Below, piece after piece: positions 6,544 through 28,395 of a stretch of DNA of 64,000 bases (position 1 is the first letter of the stretch; every line of letters begins with the position of its first letter). A program made the translations under genes and the position numbers. Where the stretch lies: NCBI RefSeq assembly GCF_024295805.1, contig NZ_JANCLX010000006.1, forward strand, positions 260,849 to 324,848. The letters run 5' to 3'. This DNA is from Streptomyces cucumeris (lineage in GTDB: Bacteria; Actinomycetota; Actinomycetes; Streptomycetales; Streptomycetaceae). The notes under the pieces were generated by a model. The model had not been told where the DNA came from. It searched no databases and was given only the letters and a program-made list of their open reading frames with translations.

Positions 6544-6553
6544 CGTGTAAACG
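6544..6553 (+). repeat. Family A site CGTGTAAACG
   Basis: Intergenic copy just left of the lysis-operon terminator, in the same orientation relative to the leftward late operon as all other exact copies. Its context GAGCGTGTAAACG is identical to the copy at 8744. Confidence 0.65.
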
Positions 6554-6589
6554 CAACGACCGGCCAACCCCGCGTGCAGCAACGCGAAG

Positions 6590-6618
6590 AGCCCCCGACC
6601 CTGTGAGGGTCGGGGGCT
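6590..6618. terminator. Bidirectional intrinsic terminator
   Basis: AGCCCCCGACCC / GGGTCGGGGGCT, 12-bp perfect stem, TGTGA loop, followed by TCTTCG. It serves the XRE-DUF397 operon and, with the next hairpin, the converging late operon. The terminator at 28399 has nearly the same stem. Confidence 0.85.
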
Positions 6619-6659
6619 TCTTCGTCCGGTCGCGGTGAGTGGCTTACGAACGACGAAAG

Positions 6660-6688
6660 CCCCCGGTCGCCCGAGAGGGCGCCGGGGG
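6660..6688 (-). terminator. Terminator of the leftward late operon
   Basis: CCCCCGG(T)CGCCC / GGGCGCCGGGGG, a 12-bp stem with one bulge and a GAGA loop. On the minus strand it is followed by CTTTCG. It lies 8 bp after the holin-like stop. Confidence 0.8.
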
Positions 6689-6696
6689 TCCGGGCA

Positions 6697-6927
6697 TCAG
6701 CCTTCGTCCGCCAGGTCGACATGCCCAGGCGACGGGGTGAGGAGAGCGTCACGGGTCTTCGCGTCCTCGACGCGCTGAACCGCCTCACCAGAGATCAGGG
6801 CCAGGACGGCCGCGACCACACCGAGAACCTGCCCCTCGGGGACGTGCACGCCGAGGGCGGCCACCAGGCCGAGGACAGCAACCGCAAGCGCGTAGACGCG
6901 TGCCGGATGGGTCTGGAGAAACTTCAC
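6697..6927 (-). CDS. Holin-like membrane protein
   Basis: 76 residues from GTG 6927, with an AAGGA site. Two hydrophobic segments (ARVYALAVAVLGLVAALGVH and GQVLGVVAAVLALISGEAVQ) separated by a short turn, then a charged C-terminal tail, match small phage holins. It is the last gene of the late operon, directly after the amidase, the classic lysis position. The identification rests on size, topology and position rather than on a specific motif. Confidence 0.7.
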   Translation of the reverse strand: MKFLQTHPARVYALAVAVLGLVAALGVHVPEGQVLGVVAAVLALISGEAVQRVEDAKTRDALLTPSPGHVDLADEG

Positions 6928-6935
6928 GGTATTCC

Positions 6936-7766
6936 TTACTTGCCGTAGGCCAGGGTGAAGAGGTAGGCCCAACCCTTCGGGCCAATCGCTACGTCCCAGG
7001 TCGACCCCTGGGACGCGTACCGCGGGTACTTCCGCAGGAAGAGACCCACGCCTTCCTGAGTCTTCGGGCCGTAGTTGTCCGACTCAGGGACGCTCTTGTT
7101 CATGAAGCCCGCGGCCTTCAGCGCACGCTGAAGCGACTTCGCCGAGGGGGTCGAGCTGTTCGGCTTCAGCCCGGTCGGGAAGGCCGGCGGGGCGTACCGC
7201 GGCTTCGGCTTCGAGGGGGCCGGAGGAGCGGGCTTCTTCGGGTCCATGTACGCGCTCACGCGCGAAAGGAAGTAGTCCCAGGGGAAGCCGGGCCCGGGGT
7301 CCGAGTGGTCCGTCTGGCCGTAGGCCGCCGACACGTCACGGTGACCGACGATGCCGCGCTTGCCCGCGACCAGCTCGGCGACGGACAGCTTCCGGGCCGG
7401 GATGTCGTGCTTCTGGCACCAGCCGGCCACGACGCGCGCCGCCTGATCGAGCACGCCCTTCGAATACTGGTCGAGCCATTCCCCCCGAGACTGCCGCGCG
7501 TACCCGGCAAGCTCGATGCCCAGGCCATCACTGTTCGCGCCCGGCGCGTGCCAGGCCCGGTCACCATCGGCGACACAGCGAACTGCCGAGTTGCTGTCCA
7601 CGCAGACGTGCGCGGAAGCCTTCGAGGTCGCGCTCATAGTCGCGAACCAATGCGCAATGTTCTCCGCGGTAAGCGGCCCCTCGGGCGCCTCCATGTCGTG
7701 AATGACGATCACGCGGATAGGGACGGTACGGCCGGGGCCGTACCACTTAGCCTGTACGAAATCCAT
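6936..7766 (-). CDS. Endolysin: N-acetylmuramoyl-L-alanine amidase
   Basis: 276 residues. The N-terminal amidase_2/PGRP domain (about 10-180) shows RVIVIHDMEAPE with the first zinc His, AHVCVDSNSAVRCVADGDRA, WHAPGANSDGLGIELAG and GIVGHRDVS...DPGPGFPWD with the later ligands. A Pro/Lys-rich linker (KKPAPPAPSKPKPRYAPP) leads to a C-terminal peptidoglycan-binding-like domain (SAKSLQRALKAAGFMNKSVP ... GPKTQEGVGLFLRKYP). It cleaves the amide bond between muramic acid and the stem peptide at lysis. It abuts the holin gene and overlaps the upstream membrane gene by 1 bp. Confidence 0.92.
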   Translation of the reverse strand: MDFVQAKWYGPGRTVPIRVIVIHDMEAPEGPLTAENIAHWFATMSATSKASAHVCVDSNSAVRCVADGDRAWHAPGANSDGLGIELAGYARQSRGEWLDQYSKGVLDQAARVVAGWCQKHDIPARKLSVAELVAGKRGIVGHRDVSAAYGQTDHSDPGPGFPWDYFLSRVSAYMDPKKPAPPAPSKPKPRYAPPAFPTGLKPNSSTPSAKSLQRALKAAGFMNKSVPESDNYGPKTQEGVGLFLRKYPRYASQGSTWDVAIGPKGWAYLFTLAYGK

Positions 7767-8089
7767 CAGGGTGCCTCCGAACGGAATAGAGAAGTAAGTT
7801 CCTGGTGCTGAGCCACGACAAGGGACCGAAGCTCAGCTATGGCCGCCTGGCCGGTGACCAGCTCGGAAAGGTGCCGGTTCTCGGCTTCGAGTCGAGCAAC
7901 ACGGCCGCATAGCTCATCTAGTTGCGCTTCGAGCCGATCGGCTCGGGCCTTCTGCGCTTCCGCTTCGCCCTTCCAAATCTCCGCCGTCTGGTTATCGACG
8001 GAGGATCGGACGCGAACGTACGCGGCGGCCAGGGCGCCGACGGTGGCCAATGCACCGAACGCCCAACCGGCAAAGCCGATAAGTGTCAT
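7766..8089 (-). CDS. Membrane-anchored coiled-coil protein of the lysis cassette
   Basis: 107 residues. One N-terminal transmembrane helix (LIGFAGWAFGALATVGALAA) is followed by a long charged coiled coil (KARADRLEAQLDELCGRVAR LEAENRHL). Located immediately before the endolysin, it is probably a spanin- or holin-like lysis accessory, or a membrane adaptor. No catalytic motif is visible. Confidence 0.65.
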   Translation of the reverse strand: MTLIGFAGWAFGALATVGALAAAYVRVRSSVDNQTAEIWKGEAEAQKARADRLEAQLDELCGRVARLEAENRHLSELVTGQAAIAELRSLVVAQHQELTSLFRSEAP

Positions 8090-8113
8090 CGGGGTGTTCT
8101 TTCAAGTCGTGCA

Positions 8114-8680
8114 TCACGCGGTGTTGTTCGTGCCAACCCAACGGGCCATAATCCCGGTGACGCGTTCGCCGGAATCGAGTCCAAGGCTTGCGCCGCTCGA
8201 CTGAGTCACGAATAGCTCGACGTAATCGCCAGCGTTAGTGATCAGGAGATCGAAAGTCCTGCTGATAGACGTTGAAGTCGTAGGGCCGGCGGCCTGGGCG
8301 AAAGTCGTGAGCGTGCTCCCAAGACCGGGATCACCAGCACTGTTCAGGCGCAAGTTCATCTGTCGATAGCCGGTCGCGTTCACCTTGAACCGCGCAAAGA
8401 TGCTGATCTCATACAGGCCCGGGGTGTTGAAGACAACTCGACTCGGGTTGACCGCGGTCGAGTGCATGGAATCCGTATCCCAACCTTCAGTACCGAAGGG
8501 GATCAGCGTTGCGGTACTGGTCGCAATCATGTCCGAGGCAATGTCACTCGACTTGTAAGCGACGGAACACCGGGGCGGATTCATCAGGAAGTCAATCGGG
8601 GTCTTCGTCGCGGCCGTCAGCTTCGAGGCCGTGACCTTCTCCCCCGCGAGGAAAGGTTGAGTAGCCGGAATGGTAGCCAT
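8114..8680 (-). CDS. Tail-tip / receptor-binding-like protein
   Basis: 188 residues. The N-terminus (PATQPFLAGEKVTASKLTAA) has the linker typical of small tail-fibre proteins. The rest is beta-rich with a C1q/TNF-like jelly-roll pattern (PGLYEISIFARFKVNATGYR, NAGDYVELFVTQSSGASLGL, GIMARWVG at the end). Such proteins form trimeric host-recognition tips. It lies between the large tail protein and the lysis genes. Confidence 0.65.
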   Translation of the reverse strand: MATIPATQPFLAGEKVTASKLTAATKTPIDFLMNPPRCSVAYKSSDIASDMIATSTATLIPFGTEGWDTDSMHSTAVNPSRVVFNTPGLYEISIFARFKVNATGYRQMNLRLNSAGDPGLGSTLTTFAQAAGPTTSTSISRTFDLLITNAGDYVELFVTQSSGASLGLDSGERVTGIMARWVGTNNTA

Positions 8681-8709
8681 ACGGCCAGGACTCCAAGGGG
8701 GTAGGCATG

Positions 8710-8741
8710 CTGAGGGGGCGGCCGGTCGGCCGCCCCCTCAG
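8710..8741. terminator. Strong palindromic terminator between tail genes
   Basis: CTGAGGGGGCGGCCG and its exact reverse complement, a 15-bp stem with a 2-nt loop, between the large tail gene and the receptor-binding-like gene. A family A site follows 3 bp later. Confidence 0.75.
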
Positions 8742-8743
8742 AG

Positions 8744-8753
8744 CGTGTAAACG
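8744..8753 (+). repeat. Family A site CGTGTAAACG
   Basis: Intergenic, beside the 8710 hairpin and just after the stop of the large tail gene (8756) on the leftward transcript. Confidence 0.65.
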
Positions 8754-8755
8754 GG

Positions 8756-11572
8756 CTAGTAGGCCAGGACCGTTGTCCGGTCGAGCCGCCCTAGCGTGGG
8801 ATCTTCGAGAACCCACACGTCGGAATTTTCGGCAGGCGAGAGCGCAAGGGTGGTTACCCATTGCAGCGTGCCGCCGTCGACCGACACATCGGTTTCGATG
8901 GCTTCGACGTAGTAATCGAGGCTGGATTCCGGGGCTTGGGAGGGCAGATCGGAAAGGGTGATCCGGTCGCCGATCTCGACCCCTAGCGCGACCATGAACA
9001 GGCCCGGGGTGGCCGTAGCGTTCAGTGTCACCGAATCGCAGCGAACAACAGGTTCCGAGTAGTGGTTCAGCAGGGTATACGCCGCATCCTGAACCGCACT
9101 GTCCGAACTCAGCCGAAGTTCAATGCTCTTCGACTTCCGGCCGAACGCGTCGATGGAACCTTGGTCCTTAACGGCACCTTCGGTGCCGTTGGCCCGCTTG
9201 TACGAGACTTCATTGATGATGCGGTCTTCGTCCATCTCGAACTGAAGCCCAGGCTCGTAAGGCAAGCCCAAACTATCGCTCAGCTCATACCGGACTGCGG
9301 CGCCCTGGCGCCGATCGCGGTTGTGGTAGGTAAGCCTTCCATCACCATCCATGAAGAGGTATCCCGAAGCATCCTCGGCCGTCTGCTGAAGCTCATCAAG
9401 CGCGCTCGCACCCGCAGACCAATCCGGCCCCTGGAGCGTGCTCATACCGGTGTCATACGCCGTCTCGCCCCAGAAGTTCGCCATGGTGGCAATGCGAGCC
9501 AGGCGCGTTTGCTCATCCTCGGGGAAATCAGCCCCGCTGTTATCGCCCAGGCGCCAAATCTCATCCAACTCGGCAGACGTAAGGCACCTATCCCAGATAG
9601 CCAGATGAGCTATCCGCCCGTTGGCGTACTCCCCATAGACCGAACCAGCTTGCCGGCCAGCGAACGAAGCCCACCGAAGATCTCTGATGTCCTTATTCGT
9701 CGGCGTGGGCCCTAGGTCCAGCAGTCGATAGACCCCGTTCAGGTACGCCCGCGTGACGCCCTGTTCGATGGTGACAACCACGAAGGACGGGGTCGACGTA
9801 CTGAGAGCAGGCCACACAGAGAAAGTTGTCTGAGTGCCCTCGGCATACGTCGTGCTTACCTGAAGGTTCCCGTAGGAGTCGAGCCGAATCCAGAGGAAGT
9901 CAGCCGCCGTATCGGACCATCCGGAAAAGAGCGTCGTATAGAGGCCCGATGAGGGGCGGACGGGCAGGCACCAGAAGGCCACCGAGAAGTCAGTTCCGAG
10001 CGGATACCGCCTCTGCCCACCGTCGCAAATATCAACGACCGTGCCCTGATTGCTCGCCACGTTGGCCAAGCTGTAACAGGTATTCGCATCCTTCTTCACG
10101 ATCGAGTCCGCACCAAGAAGGGGAGTCCCCGCACCGTACTTCGAGGCGACCAACCGTGCCGGTTGCTGGTCATTGGCCAGATTCTCAAGCCGTGCTGAAC
10201 CGGCCGGATCACCTAGCGGCCAATACCCGAGGGGCCCCGTAGTCAGGATCTCCGCTTGCAGGGCGCCGCGGAGATCGGTGTTCGACAAGACGGAGAAGCC
10301 GTCAACGGCGGAAACCTCGACCGTGGCGGTAAGGCCCTCGGAAGTCACCGGCCACTTCTCAATGTAGCCGTGAAAGATGGAACCGCCAGGAGCCCACTCC
10401 GCCAGCGTCGGCCCTTGCTCGAACTGAATCTCGTCCATGAAGAAGTACCCGTGGCCCCCTCCATCTCCGCCGCTCGTACCGATGGAGAGGCCGGCCCAGG
10501 CGGCCCCAGCCGGGGCCGTCACGGTCGACAGGGTGACGGGCAGCCACTGGCCCGAGGTCAGCGCGACAGTTGGACTGTCGGCCGTGCTGGACAGGTAGGC
10601 CCCGTTCGCGTCGTACCAGCGGACGAGTTGCTTCACGCTGAGCTGAGGTGAAGCGTCCCCTTGCCGGACCTGGACGCGGGCGCTGTATGTCTGGCCGGGG
10701 GCAACCCGCGCCAGGCCCACGGGCTTGCCGTTGTCCACGTAGCCGCAGCGGATCGAGGATGCATAGTCAGCGGCTCCGTTGGAGCCACAGTTGAAGAGCA
10801 CACCACCCACCCCCGACTTATGGACTCTCGTCCAGGCGCTGGTAGCCCCTGGGCTGTGTGCCGTGGAGAACTGAGCCGATGTGTGGCTGATGTCCCCGCC
10901 CGTCGAAAGGTCCTTCGGGGAGAGGTTCGCGGTCCGCACCCGCACGCGCCGCCTGGGGACCACGTTCGGGTAGTAGGGCTGCGTCTTGTACCACTCGGCC
11001 TTCTCGCCGTACGCGGTAAGACCCGCGGTGCCCTCGGGGTACGTGTCCGCGTAGAGGTACACAACCGCCGTGGCGACCCCGGCCGGCGGAGTCTCTTCGT
11101 GCGTGTAAACGGCCGGAGAGGAGTCGGCGACGAACCGCGTACCCGCCACGAAGCGAAGGGTGTTCCCCGAGGCGTCGAGCCACTTCACGGCGAAGTACGC
11201 CGAGACGGGCGCCCCGGACGTGTAAACGGTTCGGGACATCACCCGCGGCTTCTGGTCATCGTCGACCTGGCCCACGTTGATGGAGGACATCACCGTGTTG
11301 TTCGCGCGGCCGGCGAGGTCCCAGGCATATTGGCCCTGGGCGCCGATGAGGATGTTTCCTCCGGCTTTCCGCTTCCCGGGAGTAAAGCGGCCATCCGAGT
11401 TGTCAAGCGTCACCGAAAGGGTTCCGGCCTCGATCCGGTCCAACTCGTTGTTCCGGCCCCGCCGGACCTGGAACCCCTTCACGTAGTCGCTGATGTCCGT
11501 CCACGTATACGCGGCGGAGAAGGGGCCACCGTCAAAGGCGACTTCGACAGTGACCTTCGGGATAGAAGCCAT
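8756..11572 (-). CDS. Large tail protein with LamG-like lectin domain
   Basis: 938 residues. The N-terminal about 90 residues resemble distal-tail proteins (TWTDISDYVKGFQVRRGRNN, LDRIEAGTLSVTLDNSDGRF). Two galactose-binding-like segments follow (about 95-210 and 225-400), with tandem RVRVRTANLSPKDLSTGGD and MDEIQFEQGPT motifs. A LamG/concanavalin-like domain covers about 490-680 (DFSVAFWCLPVRPSSG, RAYLNGVYRLL, GRIAHLAIWDRCLTSAELDE). The C-terminus is a baseplate-hub-like region (NEVSYKRANGTEGAVKDQGS). It probably binds cell-surface glycans during adsorption. It follows the tape measure gene directly and contains two family A sites. Confidence 0.85.
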   Translation of the reverse strand: MASIPKVTVEVAFDGGPFSAAYTWTDISDYVKGFQVRRGRNNELDRIEAGTLSVTLDNSDGRFTPGKRKAGGNILIGAQGQYAWDLAGRANNTVMSSINVGQVDDDQKPRVMSRTVYTSGAPVSAYFAVKWLDASGNTLRFVAGTRFVADSSPAVYTHEETPPAGVATAVVYLYADTYPEGTAGLTAYGEKAEWYKTQPYYPNVVPRRRVRVRTANLSPKDLSTGGDISHTSAQFSTAHSPGATSAWTRVHKSGVGGVLFNCGSNGAADYASSIRCGYVDNGKPVGLARVAPGQTYSARVQVRQGDASPQLSVKQLVRWYDANGAYLSSTADSPTVALTSGQWLPVTLSTVTAPAGAAWAGLSIGTSGGDGGGHGYFFMDEIQFEQGPTLAEWAPGGSIFHGYIEKWPVTSEGLTATVEVSAVDGFSVLSNTDLRGALQAEILTTGPLGYWPLGDPAGSARLENLANDQQPARLVASKYGAGTPLLGADSIVKKDANTCYSLANVASNQGTVVDICDGGQRRYPLGTDFSVAFWCLPVRPSSGLYTTLFSGWSDTAADFLWIRLDSYGNLQVSTTYAEGTQTTFSVWPALSTSTPSFVVVTIEQGVTRAYLNGVYRLLDLGPTPTNKDIRDLRWASFAGRQAGSVYGEYANGRIAHLAIWDRCLTSAELDEIWRLGDNSGADFPEDEQTRLARIATMANFWGETAYDTGMSTLQGPDWSAGASALDELQQTAEDASGYLFMDGDGRLTYHNRDRRQGAAVRYELSDSLGLPYEPGLQFEMDEDRIINEVSYKRANGTEGAVKDQGSIDAFGRKSKSIELRLSSDSAVQDAAYTLLNHYSEPVVRCDSVTLNATATPGLFMVALGVEIGDRITLSDLPSQAPESSLDYYVEAIETDVSVDGGTLQWVTTLALSPAENSDVWVLEDPTLGRLDRTTVLAY
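11102..11111 (+). repeat. Family A site within the large tail gene
   Basis: CGTGTAAACG; on the coding strand it specifies GTT TAC ACG (Val-Tyr-Thr), codons otherwise avoided in this G+C-rich gene. Confidence 0.65.
11219..11228 (+). repeat. Family A site within the large tail gene
   Basis: CGTGTAAACG, again coding Val-Tyr-Thr with GTT TAC ACG, 117 bp from the previous site. Confidence 0.65.
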
Positions 11573-16880: not shown

Positions 16881-17302
16881 TACAGCCTCGCCTTCACGCG
16901 AACAACGGCTTCGAACTGCCCTTCATAGACCTGATCCGAGGGGAAGCTAGAGAGCTTCTTAGGAACGAAGTCCGTAGTGACCACGGACTGAATGCCGAGA
17001 TTGGGACTGGCCTTCATGCCGTCCTCAATCCCCGCGGCCATGCGCTGAAGCTCCCGCTCGACCTCTTCGGCCGTACCGGCCGAGAGCTGACAATTCACAA
17101 TGACGCTGACCTCAAAGACCTCTTCCCGGCTTCGGTTCGTCACCCACTGCGAATCCGGCCACTGCACTTCACCGACGAACACCCAACGGCGTTCAGGGTT
17201 TCGGGCCGGATAGCCCCAGGTGACTTGATAGCCGGCCAGGGCCGGAAGGCCCCTGATCATGTCCCGAAGGGCGGCCTTCGCCTCGAAGGCGTGTGTACTC
17301 AC
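16880..17302 (-). CDS. Tail terminator / head-tail joining protein
   Basis: 140 residues. Helix-sheet pattern (AKAALRDMIRGLPALAGYQV, WGYPARNPERRWVFVGEVQW, VFEVSVIVNCQLSAGTAEEV, EGQFEAVVRVKARL) typical of the tail-terminator/tail-completion family that caps the tube and joins it to the connector. It overlaps its neighbours by 1-4 bp on both sides, showing tight translational coupling. Confidence 0.65.
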   Translation of the reverse strand: MSTHAFEAKAALRDMIRGLPALAGYQVTWGYPARNPERRWVFVGEVQWPDSQWVTNRSREEVFEVSVIVNCQLSAGTAEEVERELQRMAAGIEDGMKASPNLGIQSVVTTDFVPKKLSSFPSDQVYEGQFEAVVRVKARL

Positions 17303-18132
17303 CTGGCCACCCCGAACACGTCATAGAAAATCCCGTACTTGTACCGCTTCAGAACCGCGTCTACTTCGGGAAGACCTGTTTCCCACCCGTTCCGGCCCGC
17401 TGTCGCCAGCGTGAAATTTCCGCCCTCGGCGGCCACGAAGCTCGTAGCGCGATCCGGGATGCCGGACCGCTCGGCCGTGAGGAACGACCGAAGCCGCAGC
17501 AAGCCCGCGCGCTTCACGTCCTCGGGGGCCTGGCCGAAGCCGTACCCGAAGGTGACCGTGTACCGGTCGCCGTCCCGAAGCTCGAAGGGCGCCCTCAAGA
17601 AGCCCGAGGAGTCGACGGCCCAACCGGCCAGATCGAGCGGCCCAGATGGGCCTTCAACGGCCTTGACGGCCGTCACATCGAAGTACCCGAGGAAGAGGGT
17701 CGCCGACCCATCCGCCTCGACCTCGATTCGCGTCGTACGCGGTACGAACGAGCGGTCAGTGATGGCCTCGAATTCGTCCTCGACCACGGCCCGGTAGTGC
17801 TTCAGCTCGGCCGTGGGGAAGCGCACCGTGTCCGCTAGGTCCATGTCCGACTGTCGAGCCTCGGGAAGCGAGAACAGGAAGGCGCCGACCACCTCGAAGC
17901 CGCCCTTGTCGACGGCCAGGCCGGCCGCCGTCCAATCGACCGTGTAAACGCCCTCGGGTTGGGCCGGGAGCGTGGCCGCCCACTCGTCCCCCGAGCTGGT
18001 CGCGTCACCCGTGTAAACGGTCTGCCCGAGGGCATCCCGCACGGTCACCGACACGGCAGGGACAGTCAGGGGCGACTCGTCGTCTAGGAAGGTGTGCGTC
18101 AGCTTGACGCCCCTACCGCTCAGAAACCGCAC
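17299..18132 (-). CDS. Head-tail connector with N-terminal Ig-like domain
   Basis: 277 residues. The first about 90 form a beta domain (DALGQTVYTGDATSSGDEWA, EGVYTVDWTAAGLA) like Ig-type decorations. The rest (LADTVRFPTAELKHYRAVVE DEFEAITD... GYFDVTAVKAVEG, RYTVTFGYGFGQAPEDVKRA) matches gp6-type connector proteins, in which a helical bundle plugs the portal. Two family A sites lie in the Ig-like part, each encoding Val-Tyr-Thr. Confidence 0.75.
   Translation of the reverse strand: MRFLSGRGVKLTHTFLDDESPLTVPAVSVTVRDALGQTVYTGDATSSGDEWAATLPAQPEGVYTVDWTAAGLAVDKGGFEVVGAFLFSLPEARQSDMDLADTVRFPTAELKHYRAVVEDEFEAITDRSFVPRTTRIEVEADGSATLFLGYFDVTAVKAVEGPSGPLDLAGWAVDSSGFLRAPFELRDGDRYTVTFGYGFGQAPEDVKRAGLLRLRSFLTAERSGIPDRATSFVAAEGGNFTLATAGRNGWETGLPEVDAVLKRYKYGIFYDVFGVAR
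17941..17950 (+). repeat. Family A site within the connector gene
   Basis: CGTGTAAACG coding GTT TAC ACG (Val-Tyr-Thr). Confidence 0.65.
18010..18019 (+). repeat. Family A site within the connector gene
   Basis: CGTGTAAACG coding GTT TAC ACG, 69 bp from the previous copy, the closest pair in the window. Confidence 0.65.
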
Positions 18133-19652: not shown

Positions 19653-20339
19653 CTAGAGCCGCGCCGCACGAAGGCTCAGGGTCACGGCTTCGTGATCCCT
19701 GATGTGCAGATCAAAGGGGCGAGTCCGCGCTTCTGCCAGCGCCGGAGCGTCGCTGTCCCCTCGAATTGCGGCCCGGATCGCTTCCGGCGAATCCAGCCGC
19801 GCTACAGAAAGACCGCGCTTCTCCGCGAAGAGCTGAAGTGCGCGGGAACCGACTCCCGAAGTGGAGTCGGCATATGCCGGGTAGGTGACCGGCGAAACGT
19901 CAAAGAGGTTGACCTTCTGAAGAGTCCGAAGCGGGAAACCGTCGTCGTCCTCGGCCCAGGAATCGCCCTCGGGGCCAGAAGTCTTGAAGCCGAAGCTCGA
20001 CTGTGAAACATCCCCCCGTTCCATGGCCGTGGCCAGGTCGCGGGCGTAAGTCGTGTCGGGCATGTCGACTTCGTAATGAAGCCCCGTGCTGTCCTCGGAA
20101 AGGCGAAGCGTGCCGCTTCGGTTCCTGCCGAGGATCAGGTTCGGGTCGTGATTGAAAAGAGCGCGAATGTCATCGCGGCCGATGCTCTCTGCCGTCGCCC
20201 CCTGGGCGACACGTTCACGAAAGCCGCCGAGGTTCGAGGAACGGGCGTCCCACTTCAGCGCATAGCCGTAGAAGTTGAACGTCCCGCCCTCGGATCGAAC
20301 CTCGAATTCGGTAGGGACTGCCCTACGCTCCATCTGCAT
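19653..20339 (-). CDS. Prohead protease, HK97 family
   Basis: 228 residues from ATG 20339 (AAGGA site); an upstream frame to 20411 encodes a low-complexity Arg/Thr repeat and overlaps the portal gene. Family motifs are visible: FNFYGYALKWDARSSNLGGF, RDDIRALFNHDPNLILGRN with the catalytic His, and ERGDVSQSSFGFKTSG with the catalytic Ser, followed by LFDVSPVTYPAYADS. It processes the capsid N-terminus during maturation and sits between portal and capsid genes as usual. Confidence 0.92.
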   Translation of the reverse strand: MQMERRAVPTEFEVRSEGGTFNFYGYALKWDARSSNLGGFRERVAQGATAESIGRDDIRALFNHDPNLILGRNRSGTLRLSEDSTGLHYEVDMPDTTYARDLATAMERGDVSQSSFGFKTSGPEGDSWAEDDDGFPLRTLQKVNLFDVSPVTYPAYADSTSGVGSRALQLFAEKRGLSVARLDSPEAIRAAIRGDSDAPALAEARTRPFDLHIRDHEAVTLSLRAARL

Positions 20340-21666
20340 TCTGTTGGTCCTTCTGATCCGTAGCGTTCGGGTCCTGGTTTGCGTTCGGGTCCGCGTTTGG
20401 ATCAGGGACAACGGGGGGCACCGGAAGGGCTGGTGGAGTCTGGCCGGCCTCGGCCTTCTTCTCTTCCTTGCCGTCGTCCCCGACTACGCCAAGGTTCAAG
20501 GGCCGGTAGAACTTCTGCCCGAGCTTCTTCGGGAGCGGCGGAAGGTCTTCCATTGCGCGAATCTCATCCGCGTTCAAGAAGCCGTTGTTCAGGGCGACTT
20601 GATACGCCTCGTATCGGTCCTTCGTCTTCGCTCGAAGTCGAGCGTCCACGTTGAAGCGGATGTACTGAAGGCCGGGAAGGAGGAAGGTGCTTACCGCTTG
20701 CTCAATGCGAACGATCCAGGGCATCAGCGTCTGGTCTACGAAGAACTTGTTCTGTTCCTCGATACCGGTTCCCCAGGTCGAGCTAACGGAAGAGTCGACC
20801 AGGTAAGCGGGAACGCGATAGAGAAGAGCGATCTCCGTCTTCTGGAACCTTCGCGTTTCGAGGAATTGAGCCTGCTCCGGGCTAAGCGTGATCGGCTTGA
20901 AGGAAGCCCCACCGGTAAGCACACCGACGCTGTGACTGTTCTTCACGCCCGCGTGCGTCTTCCGGAACATGTCTCGGAGAAGTCGCGCTTCATCAGGCCG
21001 CGGGCTACCCGGGTGCTCGATGACGCCGGCCATCGTGGTGCCCTGTTCGAAGAACCGGGAACCGAACTCCTCGGCAACCAGCCCCAGGCCGATAGCCTCT
21101 CGGGCAACGTCAATCGGGGACAGACCCCGGCTTGCGCCCGGAACCGTGAAGGCCGGAATGTGGAGAAGCTGAGACCGGTCTAGGACGCCCTGAACGGCGC
21201 CCTGGTCGTCGCTCACCTCAAAGCGGTTGTCCCCTAGGGGGCCGTCGAGAATGCTCACGTACTGCGGGTGAAGGCAGTACAGAGCGGCAACTTCGCCCCT
21301 GTCGTTCCGCAGCGTGTAGATGAACGCGTTGCCATCAGTCAGAAGACTGATGATGACGCGGAACCAAAACTCGTAGCTCGTCTGAAAGGGGTTCGGCTGT
21401 CGAATCCAGCGCGGCGACCGAACGGGATCGAAGGTTTCCTTCTGTCCGTTGATCTTCGTGTAGTGGTCGACCGGAAGGGACGCGACCGCATCCCCAATGA
21501 GGGACTGGCAGGCGTAAACCGCAATCATCTGAATCGAGTTGCGACGCGACACCTTGCGCCCCGAAGAGGTGCGAACCATGCCGACCGACTCAATGTCGCG
21601 CGCCCAATCCGAGGCCGCGCCAGACACCGCCGAGCGAAGTTCGCCAATGCGTGTAAACAGGCTCAC
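20323..21666 (-). CDS. Portal protein, HK97 family
   Basis: 447 residues from GTG 21666, overlapping the preceding stop by 4 bp. Signatures: VYACQSLIGDAVASLPVDHY, FWFRVIISLLTDGNAFIYTL, SPIDVAREAIGLGLVAEEFG, ETRRFQKTEIALLYRVPAYL and the C-terminal NNGFLNADEIRAMEDLPPLP. The last 45 residues are Pro/Asp/Asn-rich repeats (DPNADPNANQDPNATDQ). It forms the dodecameric DNA entry ring. A family A-like site covers codons 3-6. Confidence 0.95.
   Translation of the reverse strand: MSLFTRIGELRSAVSGAASDWARDIESVGMVRTSSGRKVSRRNSIQMIAVYACQSLIGDAVASLPVDHYTKINGQKETFDPVRSPRWIRQPNPFQTSYEFWFRVIISLLTDGNAFIYTLRNDRGEVAALYCLHPQYVSILDGPLGDNRFEVSDDQGAVQGVLDRSQLLHIPAFTVPGASRGLSPIDVAREAIGLGLVAEEFGSRFFEQGTTMAGVIEHPGSPRPDEARLLRDMFRKTHAGVKNSHSVGVLTGGASFKPITLSPEQAQFLETRRFQKTEIALLYRVPAYLVDSSVSSTWGTGIEEQNKFFVDQTLMPWIVRIEQAVSTFLLPGLQYIRFNVDARLRAKTKDRYEAYQVALNNGFLNADEIRAMEDLPPLPKKLGQKFYRPLNLGVVGDDGKEEKKAEAGQTPPALPVPPVVPDPNADPNANQDPNATDQKDQQNADGA
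21650..21659 (+). repeat. Family A site at the portal start
   Basis: CGTGTAAACA; on the coding strand CTG TTT ACA CGC (Leu-Phe-Thr-Arg), right after the GTG start. The same four codons surround the site at 28145. Confidence 0.6.
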
Positions 21667-23990: not shown

Positions 23991-24008
23991 CGGGCGGGTA
24001 CTCCTCTG

Positions 24009-24272
24009 CTAGGGGGCGATCGGGAAAAGGTGGGCGCTCTCCGAAGTCGTCTCGCTGACCACCGTGGTGCCGTAGAAGTCGAGAGAGCGTGTGTTCATCA
24101 CTCGCCCGGGGTTCACGGCCGCATAGAGCGCAAGCTTCGCGCTCATGTAGTCCATGGCGATCTGATCAAGCTCGGGAGTGCGCTCTACGTCCGGCGAGAA
24201 GGGGAAACCTTCGCTCGGGATGTCCTCGGCGAAAGAGAACCGGTATTCGCGGTTCGCGGAAGTGGTAGCCAT
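24009..24272 (-). CDS. Phage protein, unknown
   Basis: 87 residues starting MATTSANREYRFSFAEDIPS. Acidic, without membrane segments or recognisable motifs; a central helix (LDQIAMDYMSAKLALYAAVN) is the clearest element. Located between the tRNA genes and the terminase-side HNH gene. Function unknown. Confidence 0.6.
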   Translation of the reverse strand: MATTSANREYRFSFAEDIPSEGFPFSPDVERTPELDQIAMDYMSAKLALYAAVNPGRVMNTRSLDFYGTTVVSETTSESAHLFPIAP

Positions 24273-24295
24273 TGCGGAGCCTCGATCCGGGAAGG

Positions 24296-24305
24296 CGTGT
24301 AAACG
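24296..24305 (+). repeat. Family A site CGTGTAAACG
   Basis: Intergenic copy between tRNA-Asp and the gene starting at 24272, on the late transcript. Confidence 0.65.
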
Positions 24306-24310
24306 TGTTA

Positions 24311-24381
24311 GGCGCGCTACGGGATTCGAACCCGCGTTGCCCCCGGACAGGGGGAGTTCTAGGCCGCTGAACTAAGCGCGC
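24311..24381 (-). tRNA. tRNA-Asp (GTC)
   Basis: The acceptor stem GCGCGCT/AGCGCGC pairs perfectly. The D arm is GTTC/GAAC, the anticodon loop CTGTCCG places GTC after U33, and the T arm is CGGG-TTCGAAT-CCCG. The 71-nt length is slightly short: the base between D and anticodon stems and part of the variable loop are missing, and one anticodon-stem pair is T/C. No CCA is encoded. It could be a degenerate phage tRNA. Confidence 0.75.
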
Positions 24382-24437
24382 GTTCCCTCCGTCAGGTGAT
24401 CAGCCCGAGTTTCAGGAACAGGGGAGCTACCCCATCG

Positions 24438-24509
24438 CTGGTGTGGAAGGAATCGAACCCTCGACGTGCGGGTTTGGAAGCCGCCGCTCTACCACTGAGC
24501 TACACACCA
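24438..24509 (-). tRNA. tRNA-Trp (CCA)
   Basis: 72 nt. The acceptor TGGTGTG/CACACCA is fully paired with discriminator G73 (as in tRNA-Trp). The D arm is GCTC/GAGC, the T arm GAGGG-TTCGATT-CCTTC, and the variable loop 5 nt. The anticodon loop TTCCAAA gives CCA by numbering; the innermost anticodon-stem pair is C/C. A TCC (Gly) reading would require a shifted stem and is less likely. Confidence 0.7.
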
Positions 24510-24558
24510 CCGGGCGCCAGCGCTTCACTGAGAGGCTGCCTGGCGCAAGACAAGAAGG

Positions 24559-24606
24559 GAGCCCCCACGGAGCGCGACCGCCCTTCGCGGGTCGACGTGG
24601 GGGCTC
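24559..24606. terminator. Terminator-like hairpin between small terminase and tRNAs
   Basis: GAGCCCCCACG / CGTGGGGGCTC, 11-bp perfect stem enclosing an inner GC-rich hairpin. It may separate tRNA transcription from the terminase transcript or act as a processing structure. Confidence 0.6.
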
Positions 24607-24642
24607 AACCCCGGCGCCTGGGAGGGCGCCTGAGTGCCCCTG

Positions 24643-25104
24643 TCAGCTCAGGAGAGACAGAACCTGAGCGTCGGGGCCGTCCTCGGCCGCAGACGGCACA
24701 GAGAGCCGCGTACGGTCCGAGGGAGACAGGCCGAAGCGGCTACCGAACTTCAGCATCAAGTCGGCCGCGTCGCGCATCACTTGAGCCGCCGGGTTTTTGA
24801 CAAGGCCGCCGTCTCGGCCGGCCACAAGCGGGCCGTACTCGGCCATGGCTTCCCGGGCCGCGTTGAACGTAGCCCAGGCTTCGCAGTAGGCCACCAGATA
24901 CGCGCGGTCGACCCGCGCCAGAAGGCCCAGGCCGTCAAGCTCGGGCACGATCCGGCCCCACTCGGCCAGGGCTTCGCCCTTGAGGTCCGCGGGCGGCCTG
25001 GGGGCGCCCCTCGTCGGCTCCGGCTCGGTGCCGTTCAGCCGCTTCTTCGACGGGTTCCCCTTCAGCTCGACCAGCTTGGAAGGGGTCGGGGGCGGTCCGG
25101 GCAC
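24643..25104 (-). CDS. Terminase small subunit, P27 family
   Basis: 153 residues from GTG 25104, chosen for GAGAGAGG 8 bp upstream; an in-frame GTG at 25203 would add 33 residues. The family hallmark PPPTPSKLVELKGNPSKKRL and NGTEPEPTRGAPRPP opens the protein. Helical segments follow (LAEWGRIVPELDGLGLLARV, AYLVAYCEAWATFNAAREAM), ending with the SRFGLSPSDRTRLSV motif. It recognises packaging-initiation DNA and delivers it to TerL. Confidence 0.9.
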   Translation of the reverse strand: MPGPPPTPSKLVELKGNPSKKRLNGTEPEPTRGAPRPPADLKGEALAEWGRIVPELDGLGLLARVDRAYLVAYCEAWATFNAAREAMAEYGPLVAGRDGGLVKNPAAQVMRDAADLMLKFGSRFGLSPSDRTRLSVPSAAEDGPDAQVLSLLS

Positions 25105-25492
25105 GGCTGCAACCTCTCTCGGGTCTGAATTCCCCTTTCTGGGAAACACTTCTGTCAATTGCGCGGAGTCATCCGCGCTGGTCAACGGCCTAGGCGGTTG
25201 CACGCTCCGCTAACCGGAGCCATCCGGATTCCCACGAACTCAGGCGAACCCCCGCGCGCTCGCAGAGAGGGAAGGCGGCGGGTGCGGGGAAGGGGCCCCA
25301 GATCGTTTCGACCTCCCCCTACCGGCCTCGAAGGGCCGAGACTCTGAACCAGGATGCTCGTCAGTGCGTGATCTGGTGTGGTCTCGGCCTGGCCGTAAGC
25401 AGAGCGGTCGACTCCCCGGGCGCGCCGGTCGCATCGAATGCCCTGCCGTCTTCACGGCGAGCCTTTCGGCTCATCGCGGGGATTGTGCGGGG
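25105..25492. other. Non-coding region between HNH and small terminase
   Basis: About 390 bp without a gene I can support. In cos-type HK97-like phages the packaging site often lies between the terminal HNH gene and the small terminase, so this is the natural place to look for cos. I see no definite cos end from sequence alone. Confidence 0.35.
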
Positions 25493-25816
25493 TTAGTACC
25501 GCTTCCCTTTTCGGTAGTCGTTCTCTCGTCGTGTATTGCATGAGCGACAGAGAACACGAACGTTGTCGATCACGTTCGTCCCACCTTCCTTCAATGGAAG
25601 GATGTGGTCCCCGGTTAGGTCATTGCCTGTTCCGCAGAAAGAACAGTAGGGCTGAAGCCTGATGGCTTCGGCTCTTACCTTCTGCCATTGATAGTCATAG
25701 CGTCCACGCGTGCGCGTGTTCTTGCTCTTGTGCTTGCGTGGTGCGTTAGCGCATAGGGCACATGATGTGCCCAGGGCATAGAGCTTCTTATGCCTACTGC
25801 ACATGCTGTATGGCAT
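25493..25816 (-). CDS. HNH endonuclease
   Basis: 107 residues. An N-terminal CSRHKKLYALGTSCALC knuckle is followed by a basic stretch (RKHKSKNTRTRGRYDYQWQK). The HNH core is YCSFCGTGNDLTGDHILPLK with catalytic His, and NVRVLCRSCNTRRENDYRKG. It is the first gene of the leftward late operon, directly before the small terminase, the usual position of a packaging-associated HNH nuclease. Confidence 0.9.
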   Translation of the reverse strand: MPYSMCSRHKKLYALGTSCALCANAPRKHKSKNTRTRGRYDYQWQKVRAEAIRLQPYCSFCGTGNDLTGDHILPLKEGGTNVIDNVRVLCRSCNTRRENDYRKGKRY

Positions 25817-25882
25817 GGGGATAGCACCCCCTTCCGGGGGTGCCCCCTGTATTGGGGCGGCCTGTTGGCCGCTTCTTCATTA

Positions 25883-25898
25883 GCTATAGACCTGTTGC
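25883..25898 (+). repeat. Family C motif GCTATAGACCTGTTGC
   Basis: Matches the tape-measure copy at 11738 except for one missing base near the end. Located among the hairpins. Confidence 0.5.
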
Positions 25899-26079
25899 TA
25901 TGCCCAGGCTCTTACGGCCTGGGCTGAAGAAGTTCCTTCTATAGGGGCGCCCTCGGGAGGGGCGCCCTTCTGCTACTGCTCTCTGTCGTTCGCAGTAGCT
26001 CTATAGCTCTGGCCCCCGATCCCCCCGGTCTTCGCTCGCTCCGCTCACTCAGCCCGACCCCCTTACCCCCTGCGGGGCC

Positions 26080-26094
26080 TGTAGACCTGTTAGC
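26080..26094 (+). repeat. Family C motif TGTAGACCTGTTAGC
   Basis: Third copy, sharing TAGACCTGTTAGC with the copy at 11738. Confidence 0.5.
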
Positions 26095-26260
26095 TCGGCC
26101 AGGGCCTCACCGAGGGCCGCTGACCTGGGCAGCGTTGATTCCGCCAGGGCAGCGAAGCTAGGTTTTGGAGGACCAGAAGGGGCGGCGCCGAGGGGTGCCG
26201 TTCCGCTCACCCCATCGACCGCCCGGAGCCACCCCGGCCCGGTTTTCATGCGGTCGGTAA

Positions 26261-26274
26261 CTAGTATTTGGAAT
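26261..26274 (-). repeat. Family B motif, copy 5
   Basis: CTAGTATTTGGAAT on the top strand, 9 bp before the GTG at 26284, in the sense orientation of that gene. The following GGTGG may serve as ribosome site. Confidence 0.65.
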
Positions 26275-26283
26275 GGTGGCCCC

Positions 26284-26472
26284 GTGACGCTGGTCAAGGC
26301 TGTCGAGATGATCCGGCCCTTCGAGGGCCTGCCCCACCACGAAACGGCCGTGGCGCAACTTCACGTCGCGGCCGGCCGCGGGAAGAGGGAGCTTCACCAG
26401 GCCGCCTATCGAATGCGAAACGCCTTCGTCGCCTACGACTACGCCGTCAGCTACGGAAAGGCCGAATCGTGA
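26284..26472 (+). CDS. Small phage early protein, unknown
   Basis: 62 residues from GTG 26284. Predicted helical (VKAVEMIRPFEGLPHHETAV, GRGKRELHQAAYRMRNAFVA) with several His and Arg residues; possibly a small nucleic-acid-binding protein. It is the first gene of the rightward operon and overlaps the next gene by 4 bp (GTGA). Family B motif lies just upstream. Confidence 0.6.
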   Translation: MTLVKAVEMIRPFEGLPHHETAVAQLHVAAGRGKRELHQAAYRMRNAFVAYDYAVSYGKAES

Positions 26473-26600
26473 GCGATGAATCCGTATCCCTGCTGTTCGG
26501 CCTGGCCATCCTCGGAGTCTTCAATCTGGCTCTGTTCGTGGTCCTGACCCTGAATGAACTTCGCGAAGAACGGCCTAAGAGGGGGAAGCACCGTGGATAG
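26469..26600 (+). CDS. Small single-pass membrane protein
   Basis: 43 residues from GTG 26469. An N-terminal SDESVS leads into one hydrophobic helix (LLFGLAILGVFNLALFVVLT) and a charged tail (NELREERPKRGKHRG). Orientation would place the basic tail in the cytoplasm. It overlaps both neighbours. A superinfection-exclusion role is conceivable but not shown. Confidence 0.55.
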   Translation: MSDESVSLLFGLAILGVFNLALFVVLTLNELREERPKRGKHRG

Positions 26601-26691
26601 CGAAGTGATCGAGCTGGACAGCCTTCCGGCCGAGGAGAGAGAGCGAATTCTGAAGGATCTCTTCGAAGGGGTCGAGAACGACTGTGAGTAG
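26593..26691 (+). CDS. Very small acidic phage protein
   Basis: 32 residues from GTG 26593, with GGGGGAAG upstream. Strongly acidic and helical (SEVIELDSLPAEERERILKD LFEGVENDCE). It is held in place by overlaps with both neighbouring genes. Function unknown; acidic peptides of this size can be DNA-mimic inhibitors, which is speculation. Confidence 0.5.
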   Translation: MDSEVIELDSLPAEERERILKDLFEGVENDCE

Positions 26692-27211
26692 CGGGGCCTC
26701 GACGGTCCCCCGCATCTTGGAACTGTGCGCCGGTTACGGCGGGGTCGGGATGGCTGTAGAGGCACTAACGGGGGGTCGGGTTGCATGGGTCGCGGACAAC
26801 GATCCGAGTAAGGCCCTGATTCTGGCGCGACGGTTCCCCGGAGTGCCGAATCTCGGGGACATTACTGAAATTGACTGGTCGACGCTCTCCGAACACGGCG
26901 TAGACATCATCACGGCCGGTTTTCCGTGCCAGGACATCAGCAATGCGGGGAAACGGGTTGGTATCGAAGGGTCGCGCTCGGGAATCTGGGCGAACGTATC
27001 GGACGCCGTTCGCATTCTTCAGCCGAGACTCGTCTTCCTGGAAAACGTCTCCGCCATCCGAAGCCGAGGACTCTCCCGAGTACTCGGGGACCTGGCCGCG
27101 TGCGGGTATGACGCGGTCTGGACGTGCTACCGAGCTTCCGCCGCTGGTGCCCCCCACCACCGCGATAGGTGGTTTCTCGTTGCCGCTCCTGCCGACCCCA
27201 ACGGCCGCTGA
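26684..27211 (+). CDS. C5-cytosine DNA methyltransferase, N-terminal part
   Basis: 175 residues from GTG 26684. Contains the AdoMet motif I (LELCAGYGGVGMAVEAL), catalytic motif IV with Pro-Cys (GFPCQDISNAGKRVGIEGSR), motif VI (FLENV) and motif VIII (GAPHHRDRWFLVA), then stops. The target-recognition region and motifs IX-X are encoded in the next frame (27180-27773). Either a +1 frameshift (mutation, sequencing error or programmed) has split one gene, or it is the large subunit of a two-chain enzyme like M.AquI. It methylates cytosine C5 if complemented. Confidence 0.85.
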   Translation: MSSGASTVPRILELCAGYGGVGMAVEALTGGRVAWVADNDPSKALILARRFPGVPNLGDITEIDWSTLSEHGVDIITAGFPCQDISNAGKRVGIEGSRSGIWANVSDAVRILQPRLVFLENVSAIRSRGLSRVLGDLAACGYDAVWTCYRASAAGAPHHRDRWFLVAAPADPNGR

Positions 27212-27773
27212 CGGCCGCCGAGGACCGGACTACGCGAAGGCCGCTCGGCCTGGGGCTGGTGGCGACGATCTCGTAACCGCCATGGCCCGACTGTGGCCCC
27301 GGGACAAGACCGAGAAGCTACTGAAGACCCCCACGGCGAATCTGTCGCGCAACGGCGCCCCGCAGCACCCCGACAAGCGGAAAGAGGGCGGCCACGGCCC
27401 GACCCTCGAAGACGAAGTGTGCTTCCTACTGAACGTCGAGCCTGGGGCCGACTACGGAGGGGACTTCAGCCCCTCGGGCTGGTGGGGCGACTTCGCGCCC
27501 GCCGTCCGCCGATGGGAAGTCCTCACGGGGCAACCGGCGCCCGTGCCGGTCGAGTACGGGCCGCGCGGCGGCCTTCGCCTGGCCCCCCGCTTCGCTGAGT
27601 GGCTGATGGGGATCGTGCCCGGCTGGATCACGAAGGTCGACGGCCTCGACCGCGGCCAACAGTTGAAGGCCGTCGGTGACGGGGTTGTTCCTCAGCAAGC
27701 CTTCGCCGCGTTCGCTCACCTACTCGGGGAGCTGGAGAGGAGAGACGGTGCAAGCGTCGGCGACGTTGCCTAG
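27180..27773 (+). CDS. C5-cytosine DNA methyltransferase, C-terminal part
   Basis: The downstream frame encodes LPLLPTPTAADGRRGPDY, the variable recognition segment (LKTPTANLSRNGAPQHPDKR, VCFLLNVEPGADYGGDFSPS), a motif IX-like PRFAEWLMGIVPGW and motif X (QQLKAVGDGVVPQQAFAAFA). These are the usual second half of phage Dcm-type enzymes. A TTG at 27180 has AGGTGG 7 bp upstream, so independent translation is possible; an ATG at 27282 would drop the first conserved segment. It overlaps the first part by 32 bp and the next gene by 26 bp. Confidence 0.75.
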   Translation: MPLLPTPTAADGRRGPDYAKAARPGAGGDDLVTAMARLWPRDKTEKLLKTPTANLSRNGAPQHPDKRKEGGHGPTLEDEVCFLLNVEPGADYGGDFSPSGWWGDFAPAVRRWEVLTGQPAPVPVEYGPRGGLRLAPRFAEWLMGIVPGWITKVDGLDRGQQLKAVGDGVVPQQAFAAFAHLLGELERRDGASVGDVA

Positions 27774-28395
27774 CGAAGAGATGGCCAGGGCCGTATACAA
27801 CGCCCTGTGCTTCCTTCCGGCGCGAGCGATGGTGAAGACCGCGCGGATTCAACTCGGCCCCGCCGGCCTCACGGTGACGGGTACGGACGGGTACGCAATT
27901 GGCCAGGACGCGGCGCCGGTTGAGGACTACGAAGGGCCCGCGGATGGCGTGACGCTGCACGTCGACCGGACCGCCCTGGCGGACCTCGACACGGGCGGCA
28001 GGAAGGATAAGAAGGGCTTCGGCAGGCTCGAAGTGAAGCCCGGTGACGGCCTGATTTTCCGGCCGGGCAACAACGACACCCCCACGGCGGCTCAGGACGC
28101 TTCGGCCCAGGCCGATGAACGGCTCTGGGGGATGCTCGACAGCCTGTTTACACGCCTCGACGGGCGGCCCCTGGCCGTGCCCGAGCTGGTCGCCTTCGAC
28201 CCCGCCCTTCTGGCGCGGTTCTCCAAGGTGAAGGCCCCGAAGGGGAAAGACGGCCTCGGCCGCGCGCTCGACATGTGCGTCTACGACTCGAAGGAACCGA
28301 TCCTGTGCAAGATCGGCCCTACCTTCCGGGGCGTGATCATGCCGATTGATCGGGAAGTGCACGAAGAGAACGTTGGCCAGGACGGCCTTTGGTAG
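27748..28395 (+). CDS. DnaN-like (sliding-clamp-like) phage protein
   Basis: 215 residues from GTG 27748, with GGAGAGGAGAGAC upstream. Segments resemble beta-clamp domains: SEEMARAVYNALCFLPARAM, LGPAGLTVTGTDGYAIGQDA (compare DnaN ATDGYRLA), and a C-terminal KIGPTFRGVIMPIDREVH like the clamp's last strand. It is shorter than DnaN (about 375), so it may be a two-domain remnant or a clamp mimic. A family A site lies within it. Confidence 0.55.
   Translation: MQASATLPSEEMARAVYNALCFLPARAMVKTARIQLGPAGLTVTGTDGYAIGQDAAPVEDYEGPADGVTLHVDRTALADLDTGGRKDKKGFGRLEVKPGDGLIFRPGNNDTPTAAQDASAQADERLWGMLDSLFTRLDGRPLAVPELVAFDPALLARFSKVKAPKGKDGLGRALDMCVYDSKEPILCKIGPTFRGVIMPIDREVHEENVGQDGLW
28145..28154 (-). repeat. 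Family A site within the DnaN-like gene
   Basis: CGTGTAAACA on the minus strand. The gene runs rightward, so the site keeps the same orientation relative to transcription as in the leftward operon. It codes CTG TTT ACA CGC. Confidence 0.65.

What the first reader, a model, noticed from the sequence alone, without database searches (positions are those of the whole stretch)
6544..28154. Dispersed CGTGTAAACG sites with fixed polarity: a possible stoperator-type immunity system
Nine copies of CGTGTAAAC[G/A] (6544, 8744, 11102, 11219, 17941, 18010, 21650, 24296, 28145) plus two GTTTAAACG variants (705, 1430) occur in the prophage; I saw none in the host half. All nine keep the same orientation relative to transcription: eight on the plus strand where genes run left, and the one in a rightward gene (28145) on the minus strand. 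Six lie inside genes and force GTT, TTT or ACA codons that a G+C-rich genome avoids, so selection appears to act on the DNA. Mycobacteriophage L5 stoperators and phiC31 CIR sites are known precedents with different sequences. The binding protein is not identified here; the XRE protein or a repressor left of the window are candidates.
Basis: partly seen in the sequence, partly recalled or inferred. Interest (0 to 1): 0.78.

Follow-up and report, generated by a model that had tools for sequence, protein, structure and literature searches.

The report
Stoperator-type sites in an actinomycete prophage
A resting virus in a soil-type bacterium carries a dozen copies of one ten-letter DNA word, most facing the same way relative to its genes, together with the gene for a repressor of the kind that keeps such viruses silent by blocking RNA polymerase at many points; a mirror-symmetric version of the word sits inside some of the virus's promoters.

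Summary
CGTGTAAACR occurs 9 times in the window (0.05 expected) and 13 times in the 9.5-Mb genome, 12 of them in this prophage. The unidentified repressor lies 11 kb left of the window: a 161-aa homologue of the L5/TipsytheTRex immunity repressor. All six relatives found by repressor at 63-70% identity carry the word; five sister records with related head and tail genes but no such repressor carry none. The XRE protein is not conserved with the sites. Inside genes the sites are kept codon by codon (17 of 22 columns against 205 of 901). Polarity is strong, not absolute (58 to 18 over seven contigs). A second class appeared: the palindrome CGTTTAAACG lies in the -35/-10 spacer of sigma70-like promoters in 20 of 32 cases, against 1 of 158 for the asymmetric word; R4, Diane and JSwag showed no such counterpart. 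Best reading: palindromes are operators that stop initiation, asymmetric sites are stoperators that stop elongation. Binding and blocking are inferred. New variant of a known kind: same repressor family, new word, mostly intragenic sites, two-class grammar.

The parts
705..713 (.). GTTTAAACG, palindromic-core variant directly in front of the gene call at 714
   Evidence: gene; a GTTTAAAC 2 nt before a gene call also in G296
1420..1448 (+). Predicted sigma70-like promoter: -35 TTGGAA 1420-1425, 17-nt spacer, -10 TACTGT 1443-1448
   Evidence: same layout, often with TTGACA, in relatives
1429..1438 (.). CGTTTAAACG, perfect palindrome inside the promoter spacer; predicted operator
6544..6553 (+). 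CGTGTAAACG, intergenic, between convergent gene calls (polarity ambiguous)
8744..8753 (+). CGTGTAAACG stoperator-type site just after the stop of the leftward gene 8756-11572
11102..11111 (+). CGTGTAAACG inside tail-region gene 8756-11572 (Laminin_G_3 domain); coding strand GTT TAC ACG
11219..11228 (+). CGTGTAAACG inside the same gene; the 117-nt spacing to the previous site is kept in G296 and G307
17941..17950 (+). CGTGTAAACG inside head-tail adaptor gene 17299-18132
18010..18019 (+). CGTGTAAACG inside the same gene; the 69-nt spacing is kept in G295, G296, G299, G300 and G307
21650..21659 (+). CGTGTAAACA at the start of portal gene 20323-21666 (CTG TTT ACA CGC, from codon 3)
24296..24305 (+). 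CGTGTAAACG between tRNA-Asp (24311-24381) and the gene call 24009-24272
28145..28154 (-). CGTGTAAACA inside RusA-like gene 27748-28395 (rightward)

Best explanation
This is a repressor-stoperator immunity system of an integrated phage whose named relatives sit in Streptomyces. A 161-aa repressor of the L5 gp71 family, encoded beside the left attachment site 11 kb left of the window, is expressed in the lysogen and binds two kinds of site. At the palindrome CGTTTAAACG, placed between the -35 and -10 boxes of early promoters, it blocks initiation (operators). At the asymmetric CGTGTAAACR, scattered through early and late genes mostly with the written strand opposite to transcription, it blocks elongation by host RNA polymerase that reads in (stoperators). 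The same sites would silence a superinfecting phage of the same specificity. Shown: the repressor homologue, the sites, their polarity bias, codon-level conservation, co-occurrence with the repressor, and promoter placement of most palindromes. Inferred: binding, blocking, immunity.
For: Repressor: PHROG 357 'transcriptional repressor' E 8.5e-19; 388 phage records match by tblastn, and nearly all of those listed are annotated as repressors; PDB 7r6r, the cluster A2 repressor-DNA complex, is the best sequence match, E 1.7e-10, and the only fold match below 0.001 for a model of a relative. Co-occurrence: 6 of 6 records found by repressor at 63-70% identity carry the word; the seventh, at 28%, has none in 4.9 kb. 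S. antimicrobicus, found by its portal protein, has a 74% repressor and 12 copies, all on the one prophage contig. Five sister records have neither repressor nor word, 0 of 5 and 0 of 5. Selection on DNA: 17 of 22 conserved-residue columns in sites keep one codon in all sequences against 205 of 901 elsewhere, Fisher p 1.5e-7; in three sister records the residues themselves differ at these places. Specificity: of 30 single-base variants only changes at positions 1, 4 and 10, and one copy at 2, occur. Polarity 58:18 in seven contigs and 48:14 in six further records. Two classes: CGTTTAAACG in promoter spacers 12 of 19 and, in the second set, 8 of 13; GTGTAAAC 0 of 90 and 1 of 68; random positions 55 of 10,500 and 26 of 9,000.
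Against: No binding or transcription data. About a quarter of placed sites run against the rule (18 of 76; 14 of 62), two of them in this prophage. The sister group lacks every early gene I tested, not the repressor alone, so the WhiB-like and sigma-K-like proteins, present in 7 of 7 site-bearing relatives, are not excluded as binders. G312 and G313 carry sites but no repressor was found; they are 29- and 27-kb records that may be fragments. Only one of the four GTTTAAAC sites of this prophage lies in a promoter spacer. The structure model is weak, mean pLDDT 61. R4-type phages, with the same repressor family, show TGTGCAAGT reading with the genes, so the polarity rule is not simply shared across the family.
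Confidence: 0.86

Rival explanations
1. The two words are read by two different proteins: the gp71-like repressor binds only one class, and another conserved early protein (WhiB-like, or the sigma-K-like helix-turn-helix protein) binds the other.
For: Both proteins are present in 7 of 7 site-bearing relatives; the two classes differ sharply in placement.
Against: The words differ at one position and share the half AAACG; other single-base variants are nearly absent, as expected of one binding mode. At the 3' end of the repressor gene the site is CGTGTAAACG in this prophage and G300 but GTTTAAAC in G295, G296, G298 and G299, so the two words replace each other.
Confidence: 0.08
2. The asymmetric word acts in RNA (coding strand CGUUUACACG), as an antitermination or processing site, which would also give polarity and genic placement.
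For: Polarity relative to transcription in most sites.
Against: The near-identical palindrome sits between -35 and -10 boxes, which those promoters do not transcribe; reversed sites kept in relatives exist; a DNA-binding repressor travels with the sites.
Confidence: 0.03
3. The word is a packaging, recombination or partition signal unrelated to gene silencing.
For: Dispersed, polar, phage-specific words can serve such roles (general knowledge, no call).
Against: Promoter-spacer placement of the sister word; absence from sister phages with related portal and terminase genes; orientation that follows gene direction in both early and late regions.
Confidence: 0.03

Closest known systems
Mycobacteriophage L5 / TipsytheTRex gp71 repressor and stoperators (cluster A)
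   Same: Homologous repressor, aligned over residues 1-142 of 161; many dispersed asymmetric sites; written strand opposite to transcription, as I also count for GGGGATTGTCAAG in Gordonia phage JSwag (15 of 17 sites with up to 2 mismatches, judged by genome arm).
   Different: Core of 10 bp CGTGTAAACR instead of 13-14 bp ending TGTCAAG; most sites inside gene calls; a separate palindromic class; the DNA-contact residues named in PMC9283540 (R45, Q46, K81, R108) read K, G, R, M here by the alignment; terminase closest, among the 15 records listed, to phages of Firmicutes at about 41%.
Streptomyces phage R4 and relatives (Arquatrovirinae) repressor-stoperator system
   Same: Same repressor family, same host group, similar early genes; stoperators reported for R4-like phages (PMC10276819, passages).
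   Different: R4 and Diane (first 50 kb of each) have 0 copies of CGTGTAAAC and carry TGTGCAAGT reading with the genes; no palindromic counterpart and 0 of 19 and 0 of 21 TGTGYAAG in promoter spacers; repressors 31% identical.
Rhodococcus cluster CA stoperators
   Different: Consensus TGTCTATTGTCAAG; sites described as intergenic or overlapping gene ends.
phiC31 CIR sites
   Different: Not compared here; no phiC31-type repressor was looked for.

Membership tests
L5 gp71-type repressor-stoperator immunity (cluster A type) | Repressor homologous to L5/TipsytheTRex gp71 | tested here: met
L5 gp71-type repressor-stoperator immunity (cluster A type) | Two DNA-binding domains in one chain (helix-turn-helix plus Stoperator domain) | tested here: inconclusive
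   Sequence alignment spans both; the model of the L012 relative has helices 10-18, 23-30, 34-43, 70-81, 88-103 and then strands, but mean pLDDT is 61
L5 gp71-type repressor-stoperator immunity (cluster A type) | Many dispersed asymmetric sites of one consensus (20-30 per genome in cluster A, PMC6550527) | tested here: met
   12 asymmetric copies in this prophage; 11, 13, 15 and 19 in four relatives of 40-44 kb; fewer than cluster A
L5 gp71-type repressor-stoperator immunity (cluster A type) | Predominantly one orientation relative to transcription | tested here: met
   58:18 with 4 ambiguous of 80; 48:14 with 6 ambiguous of 68
L5 gp71-type repressor-stoperator immunity (cluster A type) | Sites intergenic or overlapping gene ends | tested here: not met
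   49 of 80 inside gene calls, 6 overlapping an end, 25 intergenic; 39, 1 and 28 of 68 in the second set
L5 gp71-type repressor-stoperator immunity (cluster A type) | Consensus ending TGTCAAG | tested here: not met
   Core is CGTGTAAACR; published consensus words vary between groups
L5 gp71-type repressor-stoperator immunity (cluster A type) | Repressor binds the sites and blocks elongation; lysogen immune | not testable with these tools
   needs gel shift, reporter and superinfection assays
Operators of the XRE protein (window 5439-6305) | XRE protein co-occurs with the sites | tested here: not met
   no match in 6 of 7 site-bearing relatives (two of the six are short records), 28% match in the seventh

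The most novel reading that the evidence does not exclude
One repressor reads two words that differ by one base: a palindrome favoured where orientation need not matter (promoter spacers, initiation block) and an asymmetric word used where it does (gene bodies, elongation block). The phage thus writes 'operator' and 'stoperator' as distinct sequences, and the stoperator class is imposed on protein-coding DNA strongly enough to fix codons and residues.
Probability: 0.5. Interest if true: 0.72.

Novelty: new variant of a known kind. Interest (0 to 1): 0.56.

Why it matters
How a stoperator halts RNA polymerase, and why its orientation matters, is open (PMC9283540 weighs a steric block against contact with polymerase; passages read). 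A phage family that writes orientation-neutral operators and oriented stoperators as two sequences, for what is probably one repressor, separates the two jobs by nature: swapping one base between the classes would test whether asymmetry is what makes an elongation block. It also places stoperator-type sites inside genes of phages of Streptomyces, where they fix uncommon codons and even residues.

Tried and rejected
XRE protein as binder: set aside, not conserved with the sites. Known words: CGTGTAAAC is absent from the first 50 kb of R4 and of Diane. Chance or codon bias: rejected. Selection on the peptide VYT instead of DNA: rejected, because intergenic and reversed copies exist, two reading frames are used by the opposed genic copies (GTT TAC ACG 31, xTTT ACA CGx 9, none in the frame with a TTA codon), and sister phages change the residues. 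A single uniform polarity: rejected. Counting k-mers around distant repressors (32-38%) of the same genus, six genomes out of 295 searched: 0 copies of CGTGTAAAC in 7 of 7 stretches of 32-40 kb, which may not hold whole prophages; one stretch (G057) has a polar GTGTGATAG word, not followed. The gap after the Lsr2-like gene, which holds a reversed site, was read for a leftward gene; none was convincing, and Rfam gave nothing on L002. A script for shared stretches of 14 or more at the prophage ends found none; the 10-base core was read by eye. The repressor scan of genome contigs found no relative although that collection holds S. antimicrobicus, which has one at 74%, so that scan misses relatives. 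Literature: searches (19 papers; 5; 4; 2) showed no report of this word or of palindromic operators paired with stoperators; I opened passages of five of these papers and saw the others as listings only. (raw sequence words) matched 216 papers, of which I saw the 15 listed. PMC5311408 (phage phiJoe) does not use the words repressor, operator or stoperator. Smith et al. 2013 (PMC3807479), cited as the source for R4 stoperators, is not held, so the R4 word here is my own count.
Full report
What is there. CGTGTAAACR occurs nine times in the window, 0.05 expected. In the whole genome it occurs 13 times, 12 of them between C56:249774 and 289002. The window begins inside this prophage. Its left end lies about 11.9 kb further left, in an interrupted gene that I read as a gamma-carbonic-anhydrase-type protein (from the translated sequence, no family search); the core shared by both ends, CAGGACAACT, was read by eye. 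Early genes run right (repressor, WhiB-like, exonuclease, DnaB-like helicase, primase, phosphoesterase, sigma-K-like, Lsr2-like), late genes run left (terminase, portal, capsid, tail, lysin), and the integrase is at the right end. Gene calls are from my own script and are approximate.

The repressor. The gene at C56:249285-249770 encodes 161 aa. It matches PHROG 357, transcriptional repressor, E 8.5e-19, and by tblastn 388 phage records (260 Mycobacterium, 103 Streptomyces, 25 Gordonia), all below 60% identity, nearly all of the listed ones annotated as repressors. Its best PDB match is 7r6r, the cluster A2 immunity repressor bound to DNA (E 1.7e-10, residues 1-142). A model of a 70%-identical relative is of low confidence (pLDDT 61), yet Foldseek's only match below 0.001 is 7r6r_A (E 4.6e-7, TM-scores about 0.4). 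By the alignment the contact residues that PMC9283540 names (R45, Q46, K81, R108; passages read) are K, G, R and M here, which fits a different target word; the numbering offset of 20 between chain and paper is mine.

The sites follow the repressor. A scan of viral contigs for the repressor gave six close relatives (63-70%) and one distant one (28%). The six carry 11, 13, 3, 4, 15 and 19 copies, the distant one (4.9 kb) none; the reversed-letter control is 0 in all seven. That is the unbiased count: 6 of 6, or 7 of 7 with this prophage. S. antimicrobicus (G307), found by its portal, has a 74% repressor and 12 copies, all on one contig of a 6.5-Mb genome. Five further portal relatives that I chose because they carry sites gave a 71-74% repressor in three (G310, G311, G314) and none in two (G312, G313, records of 29 and 27 kb). 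Portal relatives in all: of 53 loci (3 named Streptomyces genomes and 50 viral contigs, some of them the same records as above and several near-duplicates), 42 carry at least one copy of CGTGTAAAC or GTGTAAACG in the DNA held and 11 none. Ten of the 11 form one sister group (portal 72-74%); five of its records, searched whole, have neither repressor nor word but 5-17 copies of the palindrome CCAAATTTGG. Limits: in the three sister records compared gene by gene every early gene tested is missing, not the repressor alone. G308 and G309, with no repressor match at E 0.001, have 1 and 6 scattered copies in whole genomes. Seven stretches around distant repressors of the same genus have none.

Selection on the DNA. 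Codon alignments of five site-bearing genes (this prophage and four to six relatives, 57-90% identical proteins) show that in columns where every sequence keeps the residue, one codon is kept by all in 17 of 22 site columns and 205 of 901 others. GTT is fixed in three of the four conserved site valines and in 1 of 64 other conserved valines. Where relatives have VWT instead of VYT the site is gone (G295 and G300, one tail site); where G300 has IYT in the sigma-like gene or has lost LFTR in the RusA-like gene the site is gone too. In three sister records the residues at these places are IYS, VFT, AYT, IFSR and, in the tail gene, VSG and SYT.

Polarity. Over seven contigs, 58 copies of CGTGTAAAC lie with the written strand opposite to the gene, 18 with it, 4 undecided; in six further records 48, 14 and 6 of GTGTAAAC. 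In 44 portal-region loci, mostly late operon and overlapping the first set, the count by strand relative to the portal gene is 135 to 15. In this prophage it is 9, 2 and 1. Gordonia JSwag stoperators show the same sense (15 of 17 by genome arm), R4 and Diane words the opposite one; the words are near-palindromic, so the alignment between families is uncertain. Records may be related, so the counts are not independent.

Two classes. Of 19 CGTTTAAACG in seven contigs, 12 lie wholly between a TTGnnn and a TAnnnT box 16-19 nt apart, against 0 of 90 GTGTAAAC and 55 of 10,500 random positions. I then applied the same test to six further records: 8 of 13, 1 of 68, and 26 of 9,000. For all GTTTAAAC, whatever the outer bases, the counts are 13 of 44 and 11 of 33. 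The typical promoter reads ATTTGACA or ATTTGGAA, spacer with CGTTTAAACG, TAnnnT, then a leader with TGTCA (in the window TGTCAGCGAGA). The window example is 1420-1448; it is the only one of this prophage's four GTTTAAAC sites in such a spacer. R4, Diane and JSwag have no palindromic counterpart by the words I tried (0 copies each of CTTGCAAG and of CTTGAC-GTCAAG). A site also sits at the 3' end of the repressor gene: a few bases after it here, and at or within a few bases of its end in G295, G296, G298, G299 and G300 (positions); I saw none at G297.

How it likely works. In the lysogen the repressor occupies the palindromes and keeps host RNA polymerase from early promoters; at the asymmetric sites it stops polymerase that reads into early or late genes. 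Orientation is needed only for the second task, which would explain why the first can use a symmetric word. By analogy with the model in PMC9283540, where polymerase meets the helix-turn-helix domain first, that domain would hold the invariant AAACG half and the second domain the CGTGT half; this is inference. The word is very strict: of 30 single-base variants only T or G at position 1, T at 4, A or C at 10, and one A at 2 occur.

Comparison. PMC6550527, PMC5559632 and PMC13313380 (passages read) describe cluster A-type stoperators between them as 13-14 bp, asymmetric, oriented, 20-30 per genome, and intergenic or at gene ends. PMC10276819 (passages and reference list) reports R4-type stoperators in Streptomyces phages. 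Here the repressor family and the logic are the same; the word, its place inside genes and the operator-like class differ. I therefore file it as a variant that works like the L5 system rather than as a plain member.

The co-occurrence count was restated by how each record was found (6 of 6 by repressor instead of a pooled 11 of 11), the XRE result now says that two relatives are short records, and the GTTTAAAC totals were added.

Noticed in passing
L081-L087, L089, L090, L092 (records G302-G306 searched whole): A sister phage group with related head and tail genes but different early genes carries 5-17 copies per record of the perfect palindrome CCAAATTTGG, often followed by GAG; possibly another dispersed-site regulatory system with an unidentified protein.
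   Followed up: partly
window 24311-24381 and 24437-24509 (-): Prophage-borne tRNA-Asp(gtc) and tRNA-Trp(cca) genes next to the site at 24296; the Trp gene region is 92% identical over 72 bases to a tRNA-Trp of Mycobacterium phage StAugustine.
   Followed up: no
this prophage, e.g. window 1413-1424, and relatives: Repeated promoter-like element TAGTATTTG (8 copies in this prophage) and a common leader word (51 copies of CTCGCTGACA on either strand in seven contigs).
   Followed up: partly
C56:260619 (left of window) and counterparts in G295, G296, G299: A site or near-site of opposite polarity is kept at a similar place after the Lsr2-like gene, in a gap with no convincing gene; meaning unknown.
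   Followed up: partly
L044-L045 (G057): A region with a distant gp71-like repressor carries a polar word GTGTGATAG (9 of 9 copies on one strand); it could be a promoter or its own stoperator.
   Followed up: no
window 5439-6305 (+): XRE/DUF5753 regulator gene, rightward beside leftward late genes, without a match in six of seven relatives; perhaps a recently gained cargo gene.
   Followed up: partly
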